Shown here: positions 11,881 to 34,207 of the stretch, one piece after another | Layout of the letters: each line of letters opens with the position of its first letter | How positions within the stretch are numbered: position 1 is the first letter of the stretch | Assembly (NCBI RefSeq): GCF_900115675.1 | Contig: NZ_FOXI01000013.1 | Coordinates: 1 to 64,000, forward strand | Direction: 5' to 3' | Source of the DNA: Halolamina pelagica | Lineage (GTDB): Archaea > Halobacteriota > Halobacteria > Halobacteriales > Haloferacaceae | Length of the DNA: 64,000 bases | The notes under the pieces: generated by a model | Told to the model about the DNA's origin: nothing | The model's input: the letters and a program-made list of their open reading frames with translations, nothing else | Database searches by the model: none | Program-made: the position numbers and the translations under genes

Positions 11881-11967
11881 GTCAGATTAGCGTGACACCC
11901 GTGACGCTCCGGTATCGTTCTTCCATAGGACCATATTTTATGTCACGAGAGTGTGTGGGTGAGACAC

Positions 11968-14280
11968 ATGGAGGTACGCCGAAAGACCCTCGCAAAGTTG
12001 CTCGTGGTGGCGTTTGTTTTCAATTTAATCGTGATGGGTCTGGGGGCGTACCACGCGTACGAGCAATCTCCGGAACGGCCGGACCGCGTCGTCGGTCCCG
12101 ACGGCGCCGTCCTCGCCACGAATGAAGACATCGTCGCGGGAAAGGCTGCCTTTCAGCAAAACGGCCTGATGAATTCGGGATCGATACTCGGGAATGGCGC
12201 GTACTTCGGGTCCGACTACACTGCGGACGCGCAGGAACGTATGGTAACTAACATGCGCGAGTACGTCGCCCGCGAACGCTACGACACGGCGTACGACTCT
12301 CTCCCCGCGCCCGACCAAGCCGCAGTGAACGAGATCGTCAAGAACCAACTGCGGGAGGGTTCGTTCGGTGAGACGATGGAACTCACCGCCGCGGAAGCCT
12401 ACGCGTACCGCGAGGTGCGCGAAGCGTACGTTGATCGCTACTACGACGGCGCGCTGGAACACGGGATACCTGCACAGTTCGTCGAGACCCGTGAGGATGC
12501 GCAGCGGTTCGCCGATTTCGCGCTCTGGACCGCGATGTTCGCCTCGATAGACCGTCCCGGGAGTTCGGTCTCGTGGACGAACGAGTGGCCGTACAACCCC
12601 GGCGCCGGGAACACGCCGCCCACGTCTTCGATGACGTGGAGCGTCGTCGCGATGGTGCTCCTCGTCGGCGGGGCCGGTGCAGGTATCTGGCTCTACATGT
12701 CCGTCGACCTTACCGAGCCCGACACTGAGGGCGTCGACGTCCCCCACCCGAACGAGATTGACCTCCTCCCGAGTCAGTTCGCCGCTATCCGCTTCGTCCC
12801 GGTAGCGGCTATGCTCTTCGTCATCCAGACGCTTCTCGGGGGGTTGATGGCACACTACTACATCGAACGTGAGGGGTTCTACGGCATCGCAGAAGCCCTC
12901 GGCATCGATGCAGTGGCGAACCTGCCTTTCGCTATCACGAAAGCCTGGCACATCGATCTCGCAGTACTCTGGATTGCGACCCTCTGGCTCGGTGTTGGCC
13001 TCTTCCTCCCACCATTGCTCACCGGTCACGAGCCGAACAACCAGAAACGGTACATCCACGTCCTGTTGGGCGCACTGGTCGTCGTCGTCGGCGGCGGATT
13101 ACTGGGCATCTGGCTCGGCGCCCAGGGCTACATTGACGGTGAGCTCTGGTGGATTCTCGGCAATGAAGGCCTCGAATACCTAGAGGTCGGCCGGCTCTGG
13201 CAGGTCGGTCTGCTCGCCGGGTTCATTCTCTGGGCAGCCCTCGTCGCCCGCGGCTTCAAACCCTTGCTCGACCGGGAAGAGCGGTACGGGCTCGCCCACA
13301 TGATTCTCTACGCGGGTGGATCCATCGCGCTGCTCTTCTCCGCGAGCATGTTGTATACGCCCAAGACCACGATGCCAGTGACGGAGTTCTGGCGCTGGTG
13401 GGTCGTCCATATGTGGGTCGAGGGCGCCTTCGAGTTCTTCGTCGTCGCCATTATCGGCATCTCGCTCGTCGCCATGAACCTCCTTACCCGGCGCAGCGCG
13501 GCGAAAGCCGTCATGTTCCAAGCGTTGTTCGTGATGGGGGCCGGCGTCATCGGTGTCAGCCACCACTACTGGTGGATCGGCATGCCCGAGTACTGGATCC
13601 CCATGGGCAGCGTCTTCTCCACGCTGGAGTTCATCCCGCTGATCTTCATCCTTTACGAAGCCCTCGGCGAGTACCGCGCGATGATGGGGGCAGGCAAGGA
13701 CTTCCCCTATCGGCTGGCATTCATGTTCATCATCGCTTCCGCATTCTGGAACTTCGTCGGCGGTGGTGTGCTCGGGTTCTTCATCAACCTCCCGCTCGTC
13801 AACTACTACGAGCACGGCACCTTCCTCACGGTCGGCCACGCACACGGCGCGATGTTCGGCGCGTTCGGCTTCCTCGCACTAGGCATGGCCGTCTACGCCC
13901 TCCAGTTCACCACCAAACCTGGGAAGTGGAATCCGACAAATCTCCGGCGGGCATTCTGGTTGTTGAACGCTGGCCTCGCGTGGATGGTCTTTATCGGCGA
14001 TATTCCCGTTGGCTTCCTCCAGTTACAGACCGTCTTCACGGAGAACTACGACGCCGCCCGCTCGCTCGCCTTCTACAACCGCGACATCGTTCAGTGGCTA
14101 TTCTGGGCGCGCCTCCCTGGCGACATCCTCATCATCGTAGGCGCGAGCGTGTTCGGCTATGATGTCCTGAAGAAACGGTTTGTCCGCCGTGAGGAACCCG
14201 ACACGGTGCCAGAGGGAACGATCATTTCTCGGCGTATCTTCGCCGAAGATGACGCGGGTACCGACCTCGACGACGACTAA
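11968..14280 (+). CDS. norB: Quinol-dependent nitric oxide reductase (qNOR)
   Basis: 770 residues; a single-subunit nitric oxide reductase. The ATG at 11968 is preferred over an in-frame GTG five codons upstream. One N-terminal helix (AKLLVVAFVFNLIVMGLGAY) and a large extracytoplasmic region without a CxxCH heme-c site are the qNOR hallmark. A heme-copper-oxidase-like core of about 12 helices follows. Conserved histidines are seen in ITKAWHID, HMWVEGAFEFF, SHHYWWIG (HH for the non-heme iron) and VGHAHGAMFG (heme ligands). It reduces 2 NO to N2O at the membrane using quinol electrons, either in denitrification or NO detoxification. No other denitrification gene is in the window, and a transposase relic lies in the promoter region. 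Confidence 0.95.
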   Translation: MEVRRKTLAKLLVVAFVFNLIVMGLGAYHAYEQSPERPDRVVGPDGAVLATNEDIVAGKAAFQQNGLMNSGSILGNGAYFGSDYTADAQERMVTNMREYVARERYDTAYDSLPAPDQAAVNEIVKNQLREGSFGETMELTAAEAYAYREVREAYVDRYYDGALEHGIPAQFVETREDAQRFADFALWTAMFASIDRPGSSVSWTNEWPYNPGAGNTPPTSSMTWSVVAMVLLVGGAGAGIWLYMSVDLTEPDTEGVDVPHPNEIDLLPSQFAAIRFVPVAAMLFVIQTLLGGLMAHYYIEREGFYGIAEALGIDAVANLPFAITKAWHIDLAVLWIATLWLGVGLFLPPLLTGHEPNNQKRYIHVLLGALVVVVGGGLLGIWLGAQGYIDGELWWILGNEGLEYLEVGRLWQVGLLAGFILWAALVARGFKPLLDREERYGLAHMILYAGGSIALLFSASMLYTPKTTMPVTEFWRWWVVHMWVEGAFEFFVVAIIGISLVAMNLLTRRSAAKAVMFQALFVMGAGVIGVSHHYWWIGMPEYWIPMGSVFSTLEFIPLIFILYEALGEYRAMMGAGKDFPYRLAFMFIIASAFWNFVGGGVLGFFINLPLVNYYEHGTFLTVGHAHGAMFGAFGFLALGMAVYALQFTTKPGKWNPTNLRRAFWLLNAGLAWMVFIGDIPVGFLQLQTVFTENYDAARSLAFYNRDIVQWLFWARLPGDILIIVGASVFGYDVLKKRFVRREEPDTVPEGTIISRRIFAEDDAGTDLDDD

Positions 14281-14689: not shown

Positions 14690-15142
14690 TTACGGCGGGT
14701 TTGAGACACTATTCAGCTGCTCCATGTCGTCATCCTCGTACGCTGCCCGGCACATCGCATGAACGGCACGCGTCACGAGTGAGACCTCCGTCACGTCGAT
14801 ACAGGACGGCTCAGCGGCCGTCGTCGCGGCCTCGGGCGGAGGATGGAAGTGGATCTCGGGCGAGTGTGTATTCGGGTGGCGATCGAAGCGCCAGTTGATG
14901 TCGTCGCTATCGACGTAGTGGAACGCATACATCCCCAGTTCGCTCCACTGGATATCGAGCCGAGCGCTGTCGGCGTCGCCGAGCCCATCGCTGAGACTGA
15001 TCTGTAGTTCCGTGGGGGCGACGACGTCGTCATACGCTGTTTCGTCGACGAGCGGTTCGAGTTCGAGCCAGAGATCACGAATCCGCTGGAGCGCCGGGAG
15101 ATAGACCGGCCCGAACTCGCCGGCTCGGTCGTCCCCGTTCAT
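14690..15142 (-). CDS. His-rich HFHPPP-motif protein, module 1
   Basis: 150 residues from ATG 15142, which overlaps the regulator stop as ATGA, so translation is coupled. The signature is RFDRHPNTH, five residues, HFHPPP in the centre, followed by a helical C-terminus. The same signature (RWDRHPNPH, spacer, HFHPPP) occurs in the protein at 32275-32709, which is also preceded by a winged-helix gene. The clustered conserved histidines, Asp and Arg suggest a metal site or a catalytic centre. I know no biochemical function for the family. By analogy of gene order it could be the effector of a toxin-antitoxin-like or stress-response pair. Confidence 0.7.
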   Translation of the reverse strand: MNGDDRAGEFGPVYLPALQRIRDLWLELEPLVDETAYDDVVAPTELQISLSDGLGDADSARLDIQWSELGMYAFHYVDSDDINWRFDRHPNTHSPEIHFHPPPEAATTAAEPSCIDVTEVSLVTRAVHAMCRAAYEDDDMEQLNSVSNPP

Positions 15143-15651
15143 ACCGCGAGCTGGTGGCTGGCCTCGTCGTAGGCGAGTGCTGCGTGGGCAACGGCGAGAT
15201 TTTGCCGCGTCGTGCGCCACGCGGTGAGATCGTCCCAGCCCTCAGTCTCGTCGGCGTCGAGTTGCTGGGTGAGTTCCTCCGGTGACACCACGTCGTAGCG
15301 GTCCTCGTAGCGCCGGATCTCGGCCTTCATCTCTTTGATGCTGTCGAGCAACTCCGGCCGATCGACTTCCTCACGCAGTTCGCGGATCCGGGACATCAAA
15401 ATTCGGTCGGTGTTGCGCTTGTACAGCGTTGTTTGGCCGTCCTGTTCCGTCTCGGCAAAGCCCGTGTTCACGAGCGCCCTGCAGTGTCGACGTGCCGTCG
15501 GCTCGCTTACGAGGGCGCGGTCGGCGATCTCGGCTGCCGACTGCCCGTCGTGGGTTTGTTCGACCATCTCGTACACTCGCTCGAACGGCGTGGTCTCCTC
15601 TTTCCAGTCCGCTTTGACCTGCTCGTTGACGTCCTCCCATGTCTCGGTCAT
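15139..15651 (-). CDS. Winged-helix transcriptional regulator, module 1
   Basis: 170 residues from ATG 15651 (MTETWEDV). An N-terminal helix precedes a helix-turn-helix, SAAEIADRALVSEPTARRHC, with a wing (GQTTLYKRN) at residues ~35-80. A long alpha-helical, probably coiled-coil segment (IRELREEVDRPELLDSIKEM, EIRRYEDRYDVVSPEEL) follows for dimerisation. The paralogue at 32718-33257 has the same order and the shared RYD..SP segment. It overlaps the downstream His-rich gene by ATGA and so likely controls the pair. A palindrome at 15683-15695 upstream is a candidate operator. The frame is open further upstream but has no halophilic composition there. Confidence 0.8.
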   Translation of the reverse strand: MTETWEDVNEQVKADWKEETTPFERVYEMVEQTHDGQSAAEIADRALVSEPTARRHCRALVNTGFAETEQDGQTTLYKRNTDRILMSRIRELREEVDRPELLDSIKEMKAEIRRYEDRYDVVSPEELTQQLDADETEGWDDLTAWRTTRQNLAVAHAALAYDEASHQLAV

Positions 15652-15682
15652 ACTGGGTGCTATGCGCGCTATGAAGAAATAA

Positions 15683-15699
15683 TTTCCTGAGGAAACTAT
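15683..15699 (-). promoter_or_regulatory. Candidate operator TTTCCTGAGGAAA of module 1
   Basis: A 13-base near-perfect palindrome (6-base arms) 32 bases upstream of the regulator start. With the following CTAT it contains AGGAAACTAT, the complement of ATAGTTTCCT found upstream of the second module (33295-33304). Shared sequence at both modules supports autoregulation. Confidence 0.5.
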
Positions 15700-15728: not shown

Positions 15729-15898
15729 TCAGGCTACCTGCTCCTCTAACGTCTCGTAGTGTGTCCGGACCGTCATTGGCGTGACGTTCCCTGTCTCCGC
15801 GACGTCGCTTTGCGTTACCCACTCCCCGCTTTGTAGAGACAGACCGCTGCGAACCCGGTCGGATGGACGCCTGTCGTGACGCCGCGCTCTTCGGCCTT
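15729..15898 (-). pseudogene. 3-prime fragment of a TFB gene with a frameshift
   Basis: One frame reads KAEERGVTTGVHPTGFAAV, CLYKAG (second cyclin repeat of TFB); after a shift near 15840 another frame reads SGEWVTQSDVAETGNVTPM, TVRTHYETLEEQVA and stop, the normal TFB C-terminus. It is a decayed copy of the last ~60 codons. Its 5-prime side is fused at about 15890-15900 to the zinc-finger fragment. Confidence 0.6.
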
Positions 15899-30351: not shown

Positions 30352-30408
30352 TCGGCTTCAACGATGGAATCCGACAGTGGACCTCTAGTGCGTCGTGGAA
30401 GTAACTGC

Positions 30409-30465
30409 AATTCCGGACAATATGGGGGGTTATTCGGACAAGACGGACATTACGGACACGGGGGT
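30409..30465 (-). repeat. Origin-box-like repeats 6 and 7 (inverted, degenerate)
   Basis: AATTCCGGACAATATGGGGG at 30409-30428, and ATTACGGACACGGGGG at about 30449-30465. Both keep CGGACA and a G-run. They lie just upstream of the orc start, so the initiator may also control its own gene. Confidence 0.5.
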
Positions 30466-30485
30466 TTATGTGGAAGGGGCCCACG

Positions 30486-30495
30486 GGGTATACCC
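30486..30495. promoter_or_regulatory. Palindrome GGGTATACCC at the orc start
   Basis: A 10-base palindrome ends one base before the ATG (30497) of orc. It may be an operator for a leaderless transcript. Confidence 0.35.
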
Positions 30496-30496
30496 A

Positions 30497-31876
30497 ATGA
30501 GCTCGTCTCCGTACTCGACAACCTCCGAGATCTTTGCGGTCGGCGGCGAGGACTACCTCAAAGAGGGCCACACACCAACAACGCTTCCGGAACGAGAAGA
30601 CGAGATCTTGAAGCTTCGACGCTCGTTGAAGCCTGCGGCTCGTGGCGCTGGCGCCGAGAACACGTTCCTCTCGGGTAAGGCTGGACAAGGGAAGACCGCC
30701 GCCGCAAAGGCAGAACTCGCAGAGTTGGAGGCGTTTGCTGCGGCTCAAGATTTGGATCTGACGACAGTATTTTTCTCGTGTGAGGGGATCTCCTCGAGCT
30801 ACACACTCGCATGTGGACTTTGTGAGGAACTCGGTGGCGAGAACCCCAACGGCCATCCGATGCAGAAGGTGCTCGATCACCTCTGGGATGCAATGAACGA
30901 CATCGGGGGGACGATCATCATCGTCCTCGACGAAATTGACAATCTTGGAACCGACGACAAAATCCTCTATTCCCTCCCCCGAGCTCGGGACAAGGACTAC
31001 GTCAACGACGACGTCTACCCGTCGATCATCGGGATTAGTAACGATCTCCAGTGGCGTGACAACCTTGACCCCGCCGCAAAGGACAGTCTCTACGACGACT
31101 CGATCTTCTTCGCTCCCTATGACGCCAATGAGCTTCGCGATATCCTTTCCCGGCGTGCCAGCAAGGCATTCCGTGATACGTCACTCGTGTACGAGACACC
31201 TGACGGTGAAGAGTTCGAGATAGTTGTCAACCTCGACGACGATGACGGCTCGATCGCTGAAAGCTTCGACGCCATCGACGTCGATCGGACAGACTGTACC
31301 CTCGTACGTATCGACTCAGCGGTGCTGTCTGACGACGTGATCCCCCTTTGTGCTGCCTATGCCGCACAAGACAAAGGGAGCGCTCGGCAGGCCATCAAGT
31401 ATCTCCGAAAAGCTGCTGCTATCGCTGAGTCCGAAGGTGACGCCCGTGTCGAAGAAGAGCATGTTCGAACTGCCCAAGGTGAGGCCGAACGAGAACTCAT
31501 CATCGAGGGGATGGAACAACTCACGACGCAGGGGCATCTCGCGCTGGCTGCGGTGACGATCCTCGAGCTTGGAGGCCACTCCGGGATCCGGACTCGGGAT
31601 GTCTACGACGTCTACAAGTCGCTCTCAGACCACATCGATGCCGATCAACTGGCTCAGCGGCGAATGCGTGATCACTTGATCGAACTCGATATGCTGAGCA
31701 TCATCCGGGCGCGCAAATCTGCTTCCGGCTCCGTCGGCGGCGAGGCGTACACGTTTGAACTCCGGGTCGAGCCGTCAACGGCCATCGACGTGCTCGAAGC
31801 CGTCTCCCGGTTCGATTCTGTCGACTTCGATGACCTCACGAAGAACTGGCTGAATGAACAGCAGAAGCTTGGTTGA
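30497..31876 (+). CDS. orc: Orc1/Cdc6-family replication initiator
   Basis: 459 residues from ATG 30497 (MSSSPYSTTSEIF). The frame is open 34 codons upstream, but that part overlaps origin boxes and lacks halophilic character. An AAA+ domain has Walker A SGKAGQGKT (59-67), Walker B IIIVLDEID (140-148) and sensor-1 IIGISND. The C-terminal winged helix (about 370-459: HLALAAVTILELGGHSGIRT, LIELDMLSIIRARKS) binds origin boxes. It is one of the divergent plasmid-type initiators. The gene sits in the middle of the iterons (one box downstream at 31903), so it is almost surely the cognate initiator of this origin. Confidence 0.9.
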   Translation: MSSSPYSTTSEIFAVGGEDYLKEGHTPTTLPEREDEILKLRRSLKPAARGAGAENTFLSGKAGQGKTAAAKAELAELEAFAAAQDLDLTTVFFSCEGISSSYTLACGLCEELGGENPNGHPMQKVLDHLWDAMNDIGGTIIIVLDEIDNLGTDDKILYSLPRARDKDYVNDDVYPSIIGISNDLQWRDNLDPAAKDSLYDDSIFFAPYDANELRDILSRRASKAFRDTSLVYETPDGEEFEIVVNLDDDDGSIAESFDAIDVDRTDCTLVRIDSAVLSDDVIPLCAAYAAQDKGSARQAIKYLRKAAAIAESEGDARVEEEHVRTAQGEAERELIIEGMEQLTTQGHLALAAVTILELGGHSGIRTRDVYDVYKSLSDHIDADQLAQRRMRDHLIELDMLSIIRARKSASGSVGGEAYTFELRVEPSTAIDVLEAVSRFDSVDFDDLTKNWLNEQQKLG

Positions 31877-32274: not shown

Positions 32275-32709
32275 CTACTCGCCCCACAGGGTTGCGATCC
32301 GATCTTCGATCTCATCGAGGACGAGCGTCAGCACGTCGCGATGGTCGGTCGGCCAGGAGGCGTCGTCGCCGGGCGTCGGGGCGGCAGGCGGGGGATGGAA
32401 GTGGTCGCGGTTGTTGTGCGGGTTCGGGTGCCGGTCCCATCGGCACCCCCATGTGTGGTCTGGGTGGACCTCTCGATAGTGGATCTTGAAGTCATCGTTC
32501 GTGTACCACCGGATGGTCAGCTGTGCGTCGTCAACGCTCGCTGGGTAGTACGCCAGATCAAGGACGATATGGAGTTCGAGATGGCCGCTGGCGTCCGTGA
32601 TGGTCGCCTGTTCGACTTGCTGTGTCGCTCGGAGACGCGTCTGGTGGAACTCGAGGATCGGGCGGTCGATTGGGGCAGGGCTCCCGCCATCGCCTGTCGG
32701 TGGCACCAT
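32275..32709 (-). CDS. His-rich HFHPPP-motif protein, module 2
   Basis: 144 residues. The core motif RWDRHPNPH, short spacer, HFHPPP corresponds to that of the protein at 14690-15142, and both share a beta-rich centre (LDLAYYP, DDAQLTIRWYTNDDFKIHYR). It starts 8 bases after the stop of the winged-helix gene (32718), so the two are co-transcribed. The C-terminal helix (DVLTLVLDEIEDRIATLW) is equally conserved in position. The function is unknown; the two-gene arrangement hints at a regulated effector. Confidence 0.7.
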   Translation of the reverse strand: MVPPTGDGGSPAPIDRPILEFHQTRLRATQQVEQATITDASGHLELHIVLDLAYYPASVDDAQLTIRWYTNDDFKIHYREVHPDHTWGCRWDRHPNPHNNRDHFHPPPAAPTPGDDASWPTDHRDVLTLVLDEIEDRIATLWGE

Positions 32710-32717
32710 CGAGCGAG

Positions 32718-33257
32718 CTACCCGGAGGCCTGTTCGTTGTCGGCACCCATCCGTTGTTGACGAGCACGTTCGTAGCGCTCACGCTCTTCACGGGCAGTCG
32801 CCCAGTCCGAGAGGTCGCTGTATACGTCGTCGATGGTCCGCTCGTCGCTCTCCTCCGCGGCGGCGACGGCGTCGACTGCGGCCGGTGACGTAGCGTCGTA
32901 CCGGTCCTGGTACTCGCTGATTCGTGATGTCAGCTCACGAACGCGGTCCTGCAGTTCCGCAACGGACTGCTCGGCAGCGAGTTGGTTGATACGTCGCCAC
33001 TCGAAGTAGGCGTCGTTCCGTTCGTAGGTGGCCGGGTGCCCATCGTACTGGGTGACGATCCCCAACTGCTCAAACCAGTCGAGGTACTTTCGGGCGGTCT
33101 TTGGGTCACACTCGACAGCGCCGGCGATCGAACTGGCCGTTGTCGGCTCCCGCGTCTGAAGGATGGTGCCGTAGATGCGTTGTTCGACATCGTCGCCGGC
33201 AAACGCATCCTCAAACGGCGGCGGGCCGTCCGCGGCGTCTGGTTTGGACATACGCAT
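32718..33257 (-). CDS. Winged-helix transcriptional regulator, module 2
   Basis: About 179 residues from ATG 33257 (ATG 33251 is equally possible; a TTG at 33266 is less so). The HTH segment TTASSIAGAVECDPKTARKY with wing (YDGHPATYERNDAYFEWRR) is followed by a coiled coil (VAELQDRVRELTSRISEYQD) and RYDATSP, which matches RYDVVSP of module 1. It is a paralogue of 15139-15651 but diverged. It probably represses its own two-gene operon through a site like the one at 33291-33304. Confidence 0.75.
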   Translation of the reverse strand: MRMSKPDAADGPPPFEDAFAGDDVEQRIYGTILQTREPTTASSIAGAVECDPKTARKYLDWFEQLGIVTQYDGHPATYERNDAYFEWRRINQLAAEQSVAELQDRVRELTSRISEYQDRYDATSPAAVDAVAAAEESDERTIDDVYSDLSDWATAREERERYERARQQRMGADNEQASG

Positions 33258-33290
33258 ATTTGGCAAGCTACGGATATAGTTCTTGTGTCA

Positions 33291-33523: not shown

Positions 33524-33772
33524 ATGAGCAGTAAGCGGATTGACGCCGAAAGCAAGGTTTCGGGAAATCAGGCGAACATCCCGGCCCAGATACGGCGGGA
33601 GCTCGATATCGACGACGGCGACCACTTACGGTGGCACTTGGAGAACGGGACAGTCCGGGTGGAAGTTGTCCAGCAAGAGACTGGTACATTCGCGGAGTTC
33701 GACGGCTATGGTGGAGAGGAAGATACTGACGTAACGACGGACCACGACGACTGGGGCGTCGACGCCGAGTAG
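33524..33772 (+). CDS. vapB: AbrB/MazE-type antitoxin
   Basis: 82 residues. The N-terminal swapped-hairpin domain (SKVSGNQANIPAQIRRELDI, DDGDHLRWHLENGTVRVEVV) is a SpoVT/AbrB DNA-binding fold. The acidic C-terminal tail (about residues 52-82) is suited to wrapping the toxin. It ends directly against the toxin start (TAG then ATG). It neutralises the PIN RNase encoded downstream and likely autorepresses through the palindrome at 33475-33492. Confidence 0.85.
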   Translation: MSSKRIDAESKVSGNQANIPAQIRRELDIDDGDHLRWHLENGTVRVEVVQQETGTFAEFDGYGGEEDTDVTTDHDDWGVDAE

Positions 33773-34207
33773 ATGCCGCGAGCGCTTCTCGATACCAGTG
33801 TGCTGTTCGCGGCGGCGTATCAACGTGACAGCGCTCATGCAGACGCAATGCCGATTCTACGAGGCGTCGACGACGGGTCGCTTCCAGAGGCCGTCGTGTT
33901 GGATTACGTGCTTGCAGAAACGCTGAACGGGCTGACGACGCATGCAGGTCACGATGCAGCCGTCGATCTTCTCGACAGGATCGAGGAAAATGCCCGATTC
34001 CACATCGATTCCCTTCGGTCCGATGCGATGGTCACAGGGAAGGCGCTGTTCAGGCAGCACGCGTCGCTATCCTTTGTCGATGCCTGTCTCGTTGCGTACA
34101 TGCAGAGTGAGGGACTAGGGTATCTCTACGCGTTCGACGACGACTTCGACACCATCGGGGACGTGTATCGGCTCGACACGGCGACGGACCCGTATGAGCC
34201 GGAGTGA
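33773..34207 (+). CDS. vapC: PIN-domain ribonuclease toxin
   Basis: 144 residues. The PIN active-site acids are visible: D7 (LLDTSVLF), E49 (VLAETLNGL), D103 (SFVDACLVA) and the late pair around D122-D126 (FDDDFDTI). These bind Mg2+/Mn2+ and cleave specific RNA, commonly initiator tRNA or rRNA in the VapC family. It is coupled to the preceding antitoxin without a gap. A third small frame overlaps its stop by GTGA. Confidence 0.9.
   Translation: MPRALLDTSVLFAAAYQRDSAHADAMPILRGVDDGSLPEAVVLDYVLAETLNGLTTHAGHDAAVDLLDRIEENARFHIDSLRSDAMVTGKALFRQHASLSFVDACLVAYMQSEGLGYLYAFDDDFDTIGDVYRLDTATDPYEPE

What the first reader, a model, noticed from the sequence alone, without database searches (positions are those of the whole stretch)
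14690..15651. Two-gene winged-helix / HFHPPP module, first copy of a pair
Seen: coupled regulator and a protein with the RxDRHPNxH, HFHPPP signature; a paralogous module with the same order lies at 32275-33257. Retention of two diverged copies in one window suggests a mobile, selectable unit such as a toxin-antitoxin or defence module. The biochemical role is unknown to me.
Basis: partly seen in the sequence, partly recalled or inferred. Interest (0 to 1): 0.7.

Follow-up and report, generated by a model that had tools for sequence, protein, structure and literature searches.

The report
Haloarchaeal TumE-like toxin–antitoxin gene pair
The two overlapping genes most likely form a toxin–antitoxin pair, with a DNA-binding antitoxin followed by a small toxin distantly related to the protein-synthesis-blocking toxin TumE; related pairs sit on plasmids and chromosomes of most salt-loving archaea, where the second gene is still annotated only as hypothetical.

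Summary
Gene A (15139-15651, -) is a DUF7342 winged-helix protein. Gene B (14690-15142, -) overlaps it by 4 bp and carries RFDRHPNTH...HFHPPP. The pair at 32275-33257 is an old paralogue (33% and 29% identity), not a recent copy. The B family occurs in 140 of 170 genomes of the window's family, on 81 plasmid records, and nowhere outside its order in a phylum sample. Of 85 full-length B genes in named genomes, 83 have a DUF7342 gene immediately upstream; both exceptions lie beside assembly gaps. Gene A's promoter region carries a conserved 21-bp palindrome. Both genes are under purifying selection. B is a distant relative of the TumE toxin (PF20126): 12 of 20 diverse members hit TumE at E<=1, best 2.3e-4, and the Y..R.D..H...H.H residues correspond. 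B itself scores below Pfam's cut-off, so I call it TumE-like and not a Pfam TumE member. Unlike haloarchaeal TumE pairs (toxin first, HVO_A0114 partner), it is antitoxin-first with DUF7342. Best reading: a type II toxin–antitoxin module with a probable RNase-like toxin and an autorepressing antitoxin. Toxicity is untested. I found no description in the papers searched.

The parts
14690..15142 (-). Gene B, predicted TumE-like toxin, 150 aa (stop included in the coordinates)
   Evidence: ORF; family invariants W66, Y72, R85, H89, P90, H100, P102, P103; weak TumE match, 15.0 bits, E 0.026; confident alpha/beta model, pLDDT 87.8, pTM 0.85
14834..14890 (-). Signature RFDRHPNTHSPEIHFHPPP (residues 85-103 of gene B), predicted active site
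   Evidence: Conserved through the family; aligned by hhalign with TumE LLRYDNAPYHLDVGRHHRH
15139..15651 (-). Gene A, predicted winged-helix antitoxin and autorepressor, DUF7342 (PF24033), 170 aa
   Evidence: Pfam E 2.2e-39; AF2 model: winged helix at about residues 22-79 then a helical C-terminal part; Foldseek matches to winged-helix DNA-binding proteins
15139..15142 (-). 4-bp overlap of A's stop with B's start (ATGA): co-transcribed and probably translationally coupled
   Evidence: Sequence; same overlap in Halobacterium salinarum pHS2
15679..15699 (-). Palindrome ATAGTTTCCTCAGGAAATTAT, 28-48 nt upstream of A's ATG; predicted operator for A
   Evidence: 9 of 10 arm positions complementary; best inverted repeat at -48 or -49 in 35 of 46 related loci; 12 of 46 have at least 9 of 10, against 0.65% of dinucleotide shuffles
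32275..32709 (-). Gene B of the second module (RWDRHPNPH...HFHPPP), 144 aa; separate subfamily of the same family
   Evidence: 101 bits to the family profile
32718..33257 (-). Gene A of the second module, DUF7342, ATG at 33257 (a TTG at 33266 is also possible)
   Evidence: (E 2.9e-23)

Best explanation
A two-gene type II toxin-antitoxin module. A (DUF7342) is the antitoxin: its winged helix binds the palindrome over its own promoter and its helical C-terminal part binds and blocks B. B is a small alpha/beta toxin distantly related to TumE. Its conserved Y/R/D/His residues on the central hairpins form an active site, probably for RNA cleavage, that stops protein synthesis when A is lost, for example after loss of the plasmid. 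Shown here: gene order, overlap, linkage, distribution, palindrome, selection, predicted folds, and remote similarity to TumE. Inferred: toxicity, A-B binding, repression, RNase activity and translation as target.
For: Linkage: 97 of 104 B-family hits in same-family genomes and 83 of 85 full-length hits in named genomes have a DUF7342 gene directly upstream, mostly within about 40 nt; the two exceptions are beside runs of N. Asymmetry: lone DUF7342 genes are common (30 of 113) while no lone full-length B could be confirmed. TumE relation: the TumE profile run over 167 genomes gave only four matches with E above 1e-4, and all four fall on B-family genes (G089:C24, G130:C11, G111:C55, G036:C29), one reaching the cut-off with its neighbours; TumE is the only family hit by more than one of 20 members (12, best E 2.3e-4); hhalign pairs Y..H/QY, R.D and H.H, E 1.4e-4 (52% probability) and 7e-5 (62%), while an unrelated profile gives 2%. 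Durairaj 2023 (PMC10584680) proved TumE-TumA toxicity, neutralisation and inhibition of translation. Fold: two helices around an antiparallel sheet, as described for TumE. Operator. Mobility: 81 plasmid records, patchy multi-copy distribution, VapBC next to copy 2 and a VapC near the H. salinarum copy. Purifying selection: median dN/dS 0.12 (B) and 0.09 (A).
Against: B is below Pfam's TumE cut-off (15.0 against 23.4 bits) and B2 has no TumE match. hhalign probability is only 52-64%. The toxin is longer (150 against about 100 aa), gene order is reversed and the partner family differs from haloarchaeal TumE pairs. No structural superposition on TumE could be made. Several DUF7342-linked subfamilies lack the R.D motif. 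The palindrome is clear only in the main subfamily. No experiment exists.
Confidence: 0.74

Rival explanations
1. A real toxin-antitoxin pair whose toxin is not homologous to TumE: the R.D...H.H motif arose independently and the target may differ (DNA, nucleotide or metal chemistry).
For: B is under the Pfam cut-off, hhalign gives only 52-64%, copy 2 and several DUF7342-linked subfamilies match no TumE model, and one subfamily matches SPDY/DUF317 weakly.
Against: Twelve of 20 diverse members hit TumE and no other family recurs; the motif, its spacing and its place on consecutive predicted strands correspond.
Confidence: 0.12
2. A non-toxic regulatory pair: B is a small-molecule or metal-binding co-regulator of the winged-helix protein A.
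For: A resembles ArsR/MarR/IclR-type regulators; H-x-H and HP motifs could bind metal.
Against: No conserved target operon: the neighbours differ between loci, and the operator lies at the module's own promoter. Patchy multi-copy plasmid distribution and lone regulators without B are toxin-antitoxin traits. B resembles a toxin.
Confidence: 0.08
3. Mainly an anti-virus (abortive infection) device that happens to be built like a toxin-antitoxin pair.
For: DUF7342 genes sit in islands with MNT-HEPN, TumE and VapBC genes.
Against: No PADLOC model for B; untested with viruses. It overlaps with the best explanation rather than excluding it.
Confidence: 0.04
4. A plasmid partition module with A as a centromere-binding protein like pNOB8 AspA.
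For: Foldseek places AspA (4rs8, 5k5q) among A's best winged-helix matches.
Against: Dozens of other winged-helix regulators match equally; no ParA/ParB partner seen; the binding site is one palindrome at the promoter, not an array; many copies are chromosomal.
Confidence: 0.02

Closest known systems
TumE-TumA (Pfam PF20126 / former DUF6516; Durairaj et al. 2023, PMC10584680)
   Same: Small alpha/beta protein with Y...R-x-D...H...H-x-H motif, partnered by a DNA-binding protein in a two-gene operon; PF20126 is the only Pfam family repeatedly hit by gene B's family
   Different: Below the Pfam cut-off; extra N-terminal region (150 against about 100 aa); HFHPPP tail; partner is DUF7342, encoded first. 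Haloarchaeal TumE comes first and is followed by an HVO_A0114 (PF25212) winged-helix gene
DUF7342 (PF24033)
   Same: Gene A of both modules is a clear member
   Different: The family had no assigned function; here it is proposed as an antitoxin with autorepression
VapBC, MNT-HEPN and other type II toxin-antitoxin systems of archaea
   Same: Two-gene antitoxin-first operon, mobile, in the same islands; a DUF7342 gene also sits beside an MNT-HEPN pair
   Different: Unrelated toxin and antitoxin folds

Membership tests
TumE toxin (PF20126) | Score over Pfam's gathering cut-off (23.4 bits) | tested here: not met
   B 15.0 bits, B2 no match; one relative (G089:C24) just reaches 23.4 with its neighbours in the frame
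TumE toxin (PF20126) | Conserved Y, R-x-D, H, H-x(1,2)-H residues in the hairpin region | tested here: met
   A1 invariants Y72, R85, H89, H100 and near-invariants D87, H98 against A2 invariants Y40, R54, D56, H61, H67, H70
TumE toxin (PF20126) | Fold: two helices packed on an antiparallel sheet of about seven strands | tested here: inconclusive
   AF2 model of B has helices 15-28 and 120-137, six strands and one short bridge; no TumE structure in the PDB copy to superpose on
TumE toxin (PF20126) | Toxic alone, neutralised by partner, inhibits translation | not testable with these tools
   Needs expression experiments
DUF7342 (PF24033) | Score over Pfam cut-off (31.6 bits) | tested here: met
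   A 135.3 bits, A2 82.9 bits
Type II toxin-antitoxin system | Compact two-gene operon kept together | tested here: met
   4-bp overlap; 83 of 85 linked, exceptions at gaps
Type II toxin-antitoxin system | Antitoxin with DNA-binding domain and an operator at its own promoter | tested here: inconclusive
   Winged helix and conserved palindrome; binding not shown
Type II toxin-antitoxin system | Toxin not tolerated without antitoxin | tested here: inconclusive
   No confirmed lone full-length B, many lone A; genomic asymmetry only
Type II toxin-antitoxin system | Protein-protein neutralisation | not testable with these tools
   No complex prediction available here
Known anti-phage defence system | Match to a PADLOC model | tested here: inconclusive
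   No model matches B or B2; A matches only generic HTH parts

The most novel reading that the evidence does not exclude
DUF7342 is a haloarchaea-specific, partner-swapping antitoxin that controls a large, so far unnamed superfamily of His-motif toxins (RFDxHP..HFHPPP, RWDRHPNxH, GWHxDxxHP..HFQ, HLEPNPH..HLHY, GFHQDxDHP types). TumE would be a distant outgroup, and the changed active-site motifs would mean changed RNA targets or lost catalysis.
Probability: 0.35. Interest if true: 0.65.

Novelty: new variant of a known kind. Interest (0 to 1): 0.5.

Why it matters
It gives a testable function to two protein groups found in most haloarchaeal genomes, one a Pfam DUF and the other in no Pfam family and annotated 'hypothetical'. 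It extends the recently discovered TumE toxin fold to a divergent branch with a different antitoxin and reversed gene order. Copies exist on plasmids of tractable organisms such as Halobacterium salinarum (OE_RS11430/OE_RS11425 on pHS2) and Haloferax mediterranei, so toxicity and plasmid addiction can be tested directly.

Tried and rejected
Searches of viral contigs and phage records found no B relatives. Profile searches of PDB sequences found no relative of B or of TumE. Foldseek of the B model against PDB and viral models had no match at E<=0.001, and VIA-align gave only middling Z (best 6.7; Mediator, frataxin, E2 and capping-protein types), read as a common arrangement; TumE was likewise reported to have no PDB match. 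I could not fold a canonical TumE because no permitted locus with an intact one was found. PADLOC and NCBIfam gave nothing specific. A recent-duplication origin of the two copies was rejected. A promoter palindrome equal to copy 1's was not found at copy 2. Literature searches found no paper naming DUF7342 or this pair.

Full report
Observation. A is Pfam DUF7342 (E 2.2e-39) with a winged-helix N-terminus; B carries RFDRHPNTHSPEIHFHPPP. The second module (32275-33257, -) has the same order, with DUF7342 at E 2.9e-23 and RWDRHPNPHNNRDHFHPPP. B/B2 identity is 33% and A/A2 29%, so the two are old paralogues of different subfamilies. The genome (about 3.2 Mb, 37 contigs) has nine DUF7342 genes over the cut-off; four have a clear HFHPPP partner.

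Distribution. B relatives are in 140 of 170 genomes of the window's family, often in several copies. In a sample of 295 genomes across the phylum all 40 genomes with a match belong to the window's own order. Named relatives include Halobaculum, Halorubrum, Haloferax, Haloarcula-type genera, Natrinema, Natronorubrum, Halobacterium and Haloquadratum. They are on 81 plasmid records, typically annotated 'hypothetical protein' beside 'winged helix-turn-helix domain-containing protein'. No viral or phage relative was found.

Linkage. Among B-family ORFs in loci from the genome sample, 97 of 104 have a DUF7342-like ORF just upstream on the same strand; that set mixes loci fetched by B and by DUF7342. 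In the named genomes, fetched by B alone, 83 of 85 full-length B genes do. Reading the two exceptions showed runs of N directly upstream (L185) or about 150 bp upstream (L209), so no lone B is established. Conversely 30 of 113 DUF7342-like genes in these loci have no recognised B behind them; many are lone genes convergent with the module. Lone antitoxins but no lone toxins is the pattern expected of toxin-antitoxin systems. In loci fetched by DUF7342 itself (L121-L149), most are followed by a member of the same wider family, including variants with GWHxDxxHP...HFQ, HLEPNPH...HLHY and GFHQDADHP motifs.

What B is. A 43-sequence alignment gave a confident AF2 model (pLDDT 87.8, pTM 0.85): helix 15-28, strands 32-37, 46-50, 60-67, 72-78, 83-91, 94-100, helix 120-137. 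By strand register (inference from DSSP limits, no coordinates were available) Y72, Y76, R85, D87, H89, H98 and H100 lie on one face of two adjoining hairpins, a plausible active site. Remote similarity points to TumE: the TumE profile hits B weakly (15.0 bits), hits 12 of 20 diverse relatives at E<=1 (best 2.3e-4), and in a search of 167 genomes its four matches with E above 1e-4 are all B-family genes. Profile-profile comparison aligns MYAFHYVDSDDI-NWRFDRHP-NTHSPEIHFHPPP with KYSFQYMDADGDTLLRYDNAPYHLDVGRHHRHPPE at 52-64% probability, E 6.5e-5 to 1.4e-4 for the single comparison, while an unrelated profile gives 2%. TumE is a proven toxin: six TumE proteins stopped E. coli growth, cognate TumA neutralised them, and one inhibited protein synthesis, with RNase activity proposed but unproven (PMC10584680).

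How it differs from haloarchaeal TumE. Canonical TumE genes are also present (84 of 167 genomes; three in this genome). They come first and are followed by a different winged-helix protein, HVO_A0114 (PF25212). The module here is antitoxin-first with DUF7342 and has a longer toxin. Because B misses the Pfam cut-off, I do not file it as a Pfam TumE member; I call it TumE-like.

Regulation. Upstream of A, 46 main-type loci share a palindrome close to ATAGTTTTCTCAGGAAACTAT. The best inverted repeat starts 48 or 49 nt upstream of the ATG in 35 of 46; 12 of 46 reach 9 of 10 complementary arm positions, against 0.65% of dinucleotide shuffles. The window's copy (15679-15699) has 9 of 10. Its place next to an AT-rich promoter-like stretch suggests autorepression (inference). 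A's model has a winged helix followed by a helical C-terminal part with a long helix 136-169, a usual layout for an antitoxin with a toxin-binding tail (inference). Copy 2 lacks the same palindrome.

Selection and context. Median dN/dS is about 0.12 for B and 0.09 for A (Nei-Gojobori, many pairs near saturation, so approximate). Copy 2 lies between an Orc1/Cdc6 gene and a VapBC pair, as expected on a plasmid-like element; the H. salinarum pHS2 pair has a VapC gene and a transposase nearby.

Verdict. Most likely this is a widespread, undescribed variant of a TumE-like type II toxin-antitoxin system. Toxicity, neutralisation and RNase activity remain to be tested.

Noticed in passing
window 33524-34207: A MazE/AbrB-like antitoxin gene (23.4 bits, just under the 24.7 cut-off) and a PIN toxin (VapBC type) directly beside the second module.
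   Followed up: partly
window 30395-31876: Orc1/Cdc6 replication initiator gene close to the second module, suggesting a plasmid-like replicon or integrated element.
   Followed up: partly
window 15732-15821; L154, L168, L173 upstream of gene A: Remnant of the 3' end of a transcription factor B (TFB)-like gene just upstream of gene A. Many relatives have a long TFB-like ORF in the same place (my reading of the sequence, no Pfam scan), so the module often travels behind a plasmid tfb gene.
   Followed up: partly
L150, L152, L153, L154, L173, L192, L196 near 4464; G000:C7:3286-3729: A second DUF7342-like gene often lies convergent with and directly behind gene B without a toxin of its own; it may be an orphan antitoxin.
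   Followed up: partly
L003 (G000:C13), L008 (G000:C37): DUF7342 genes of the same genome are followed by an MNT-HEPN pair (L003) or by a gene with an HEYAHTLLH metallopeptidase motif (L008), hinting that the antitoxin swaps partners.
   Followed up: no
L127, L128, L131, L132 (gene behind DUF7342): A DUF7342-linked subfamily with GWHQDEDHPDLG..HFQ; one member matches Pfam SPDY (DUF317) at E 6.9e-5, just below cut-off, and others lack the R-x-D motif. Their activity is unclear.
   Followed up: no
G000:C37:13751-13978, C10:4439-4684, C23:4623-4847: Canonical TumE genes in the same genome, each followed by a separate winged-helix gene; relatives of that gene in other loci are HVO_A0114.
   Followed up: partly
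window 11953-14280: Quinol-dependent nitric oxide reductase (NorB with fused cytochrome c-like domain) gene next to the first module.
   Followed up: no
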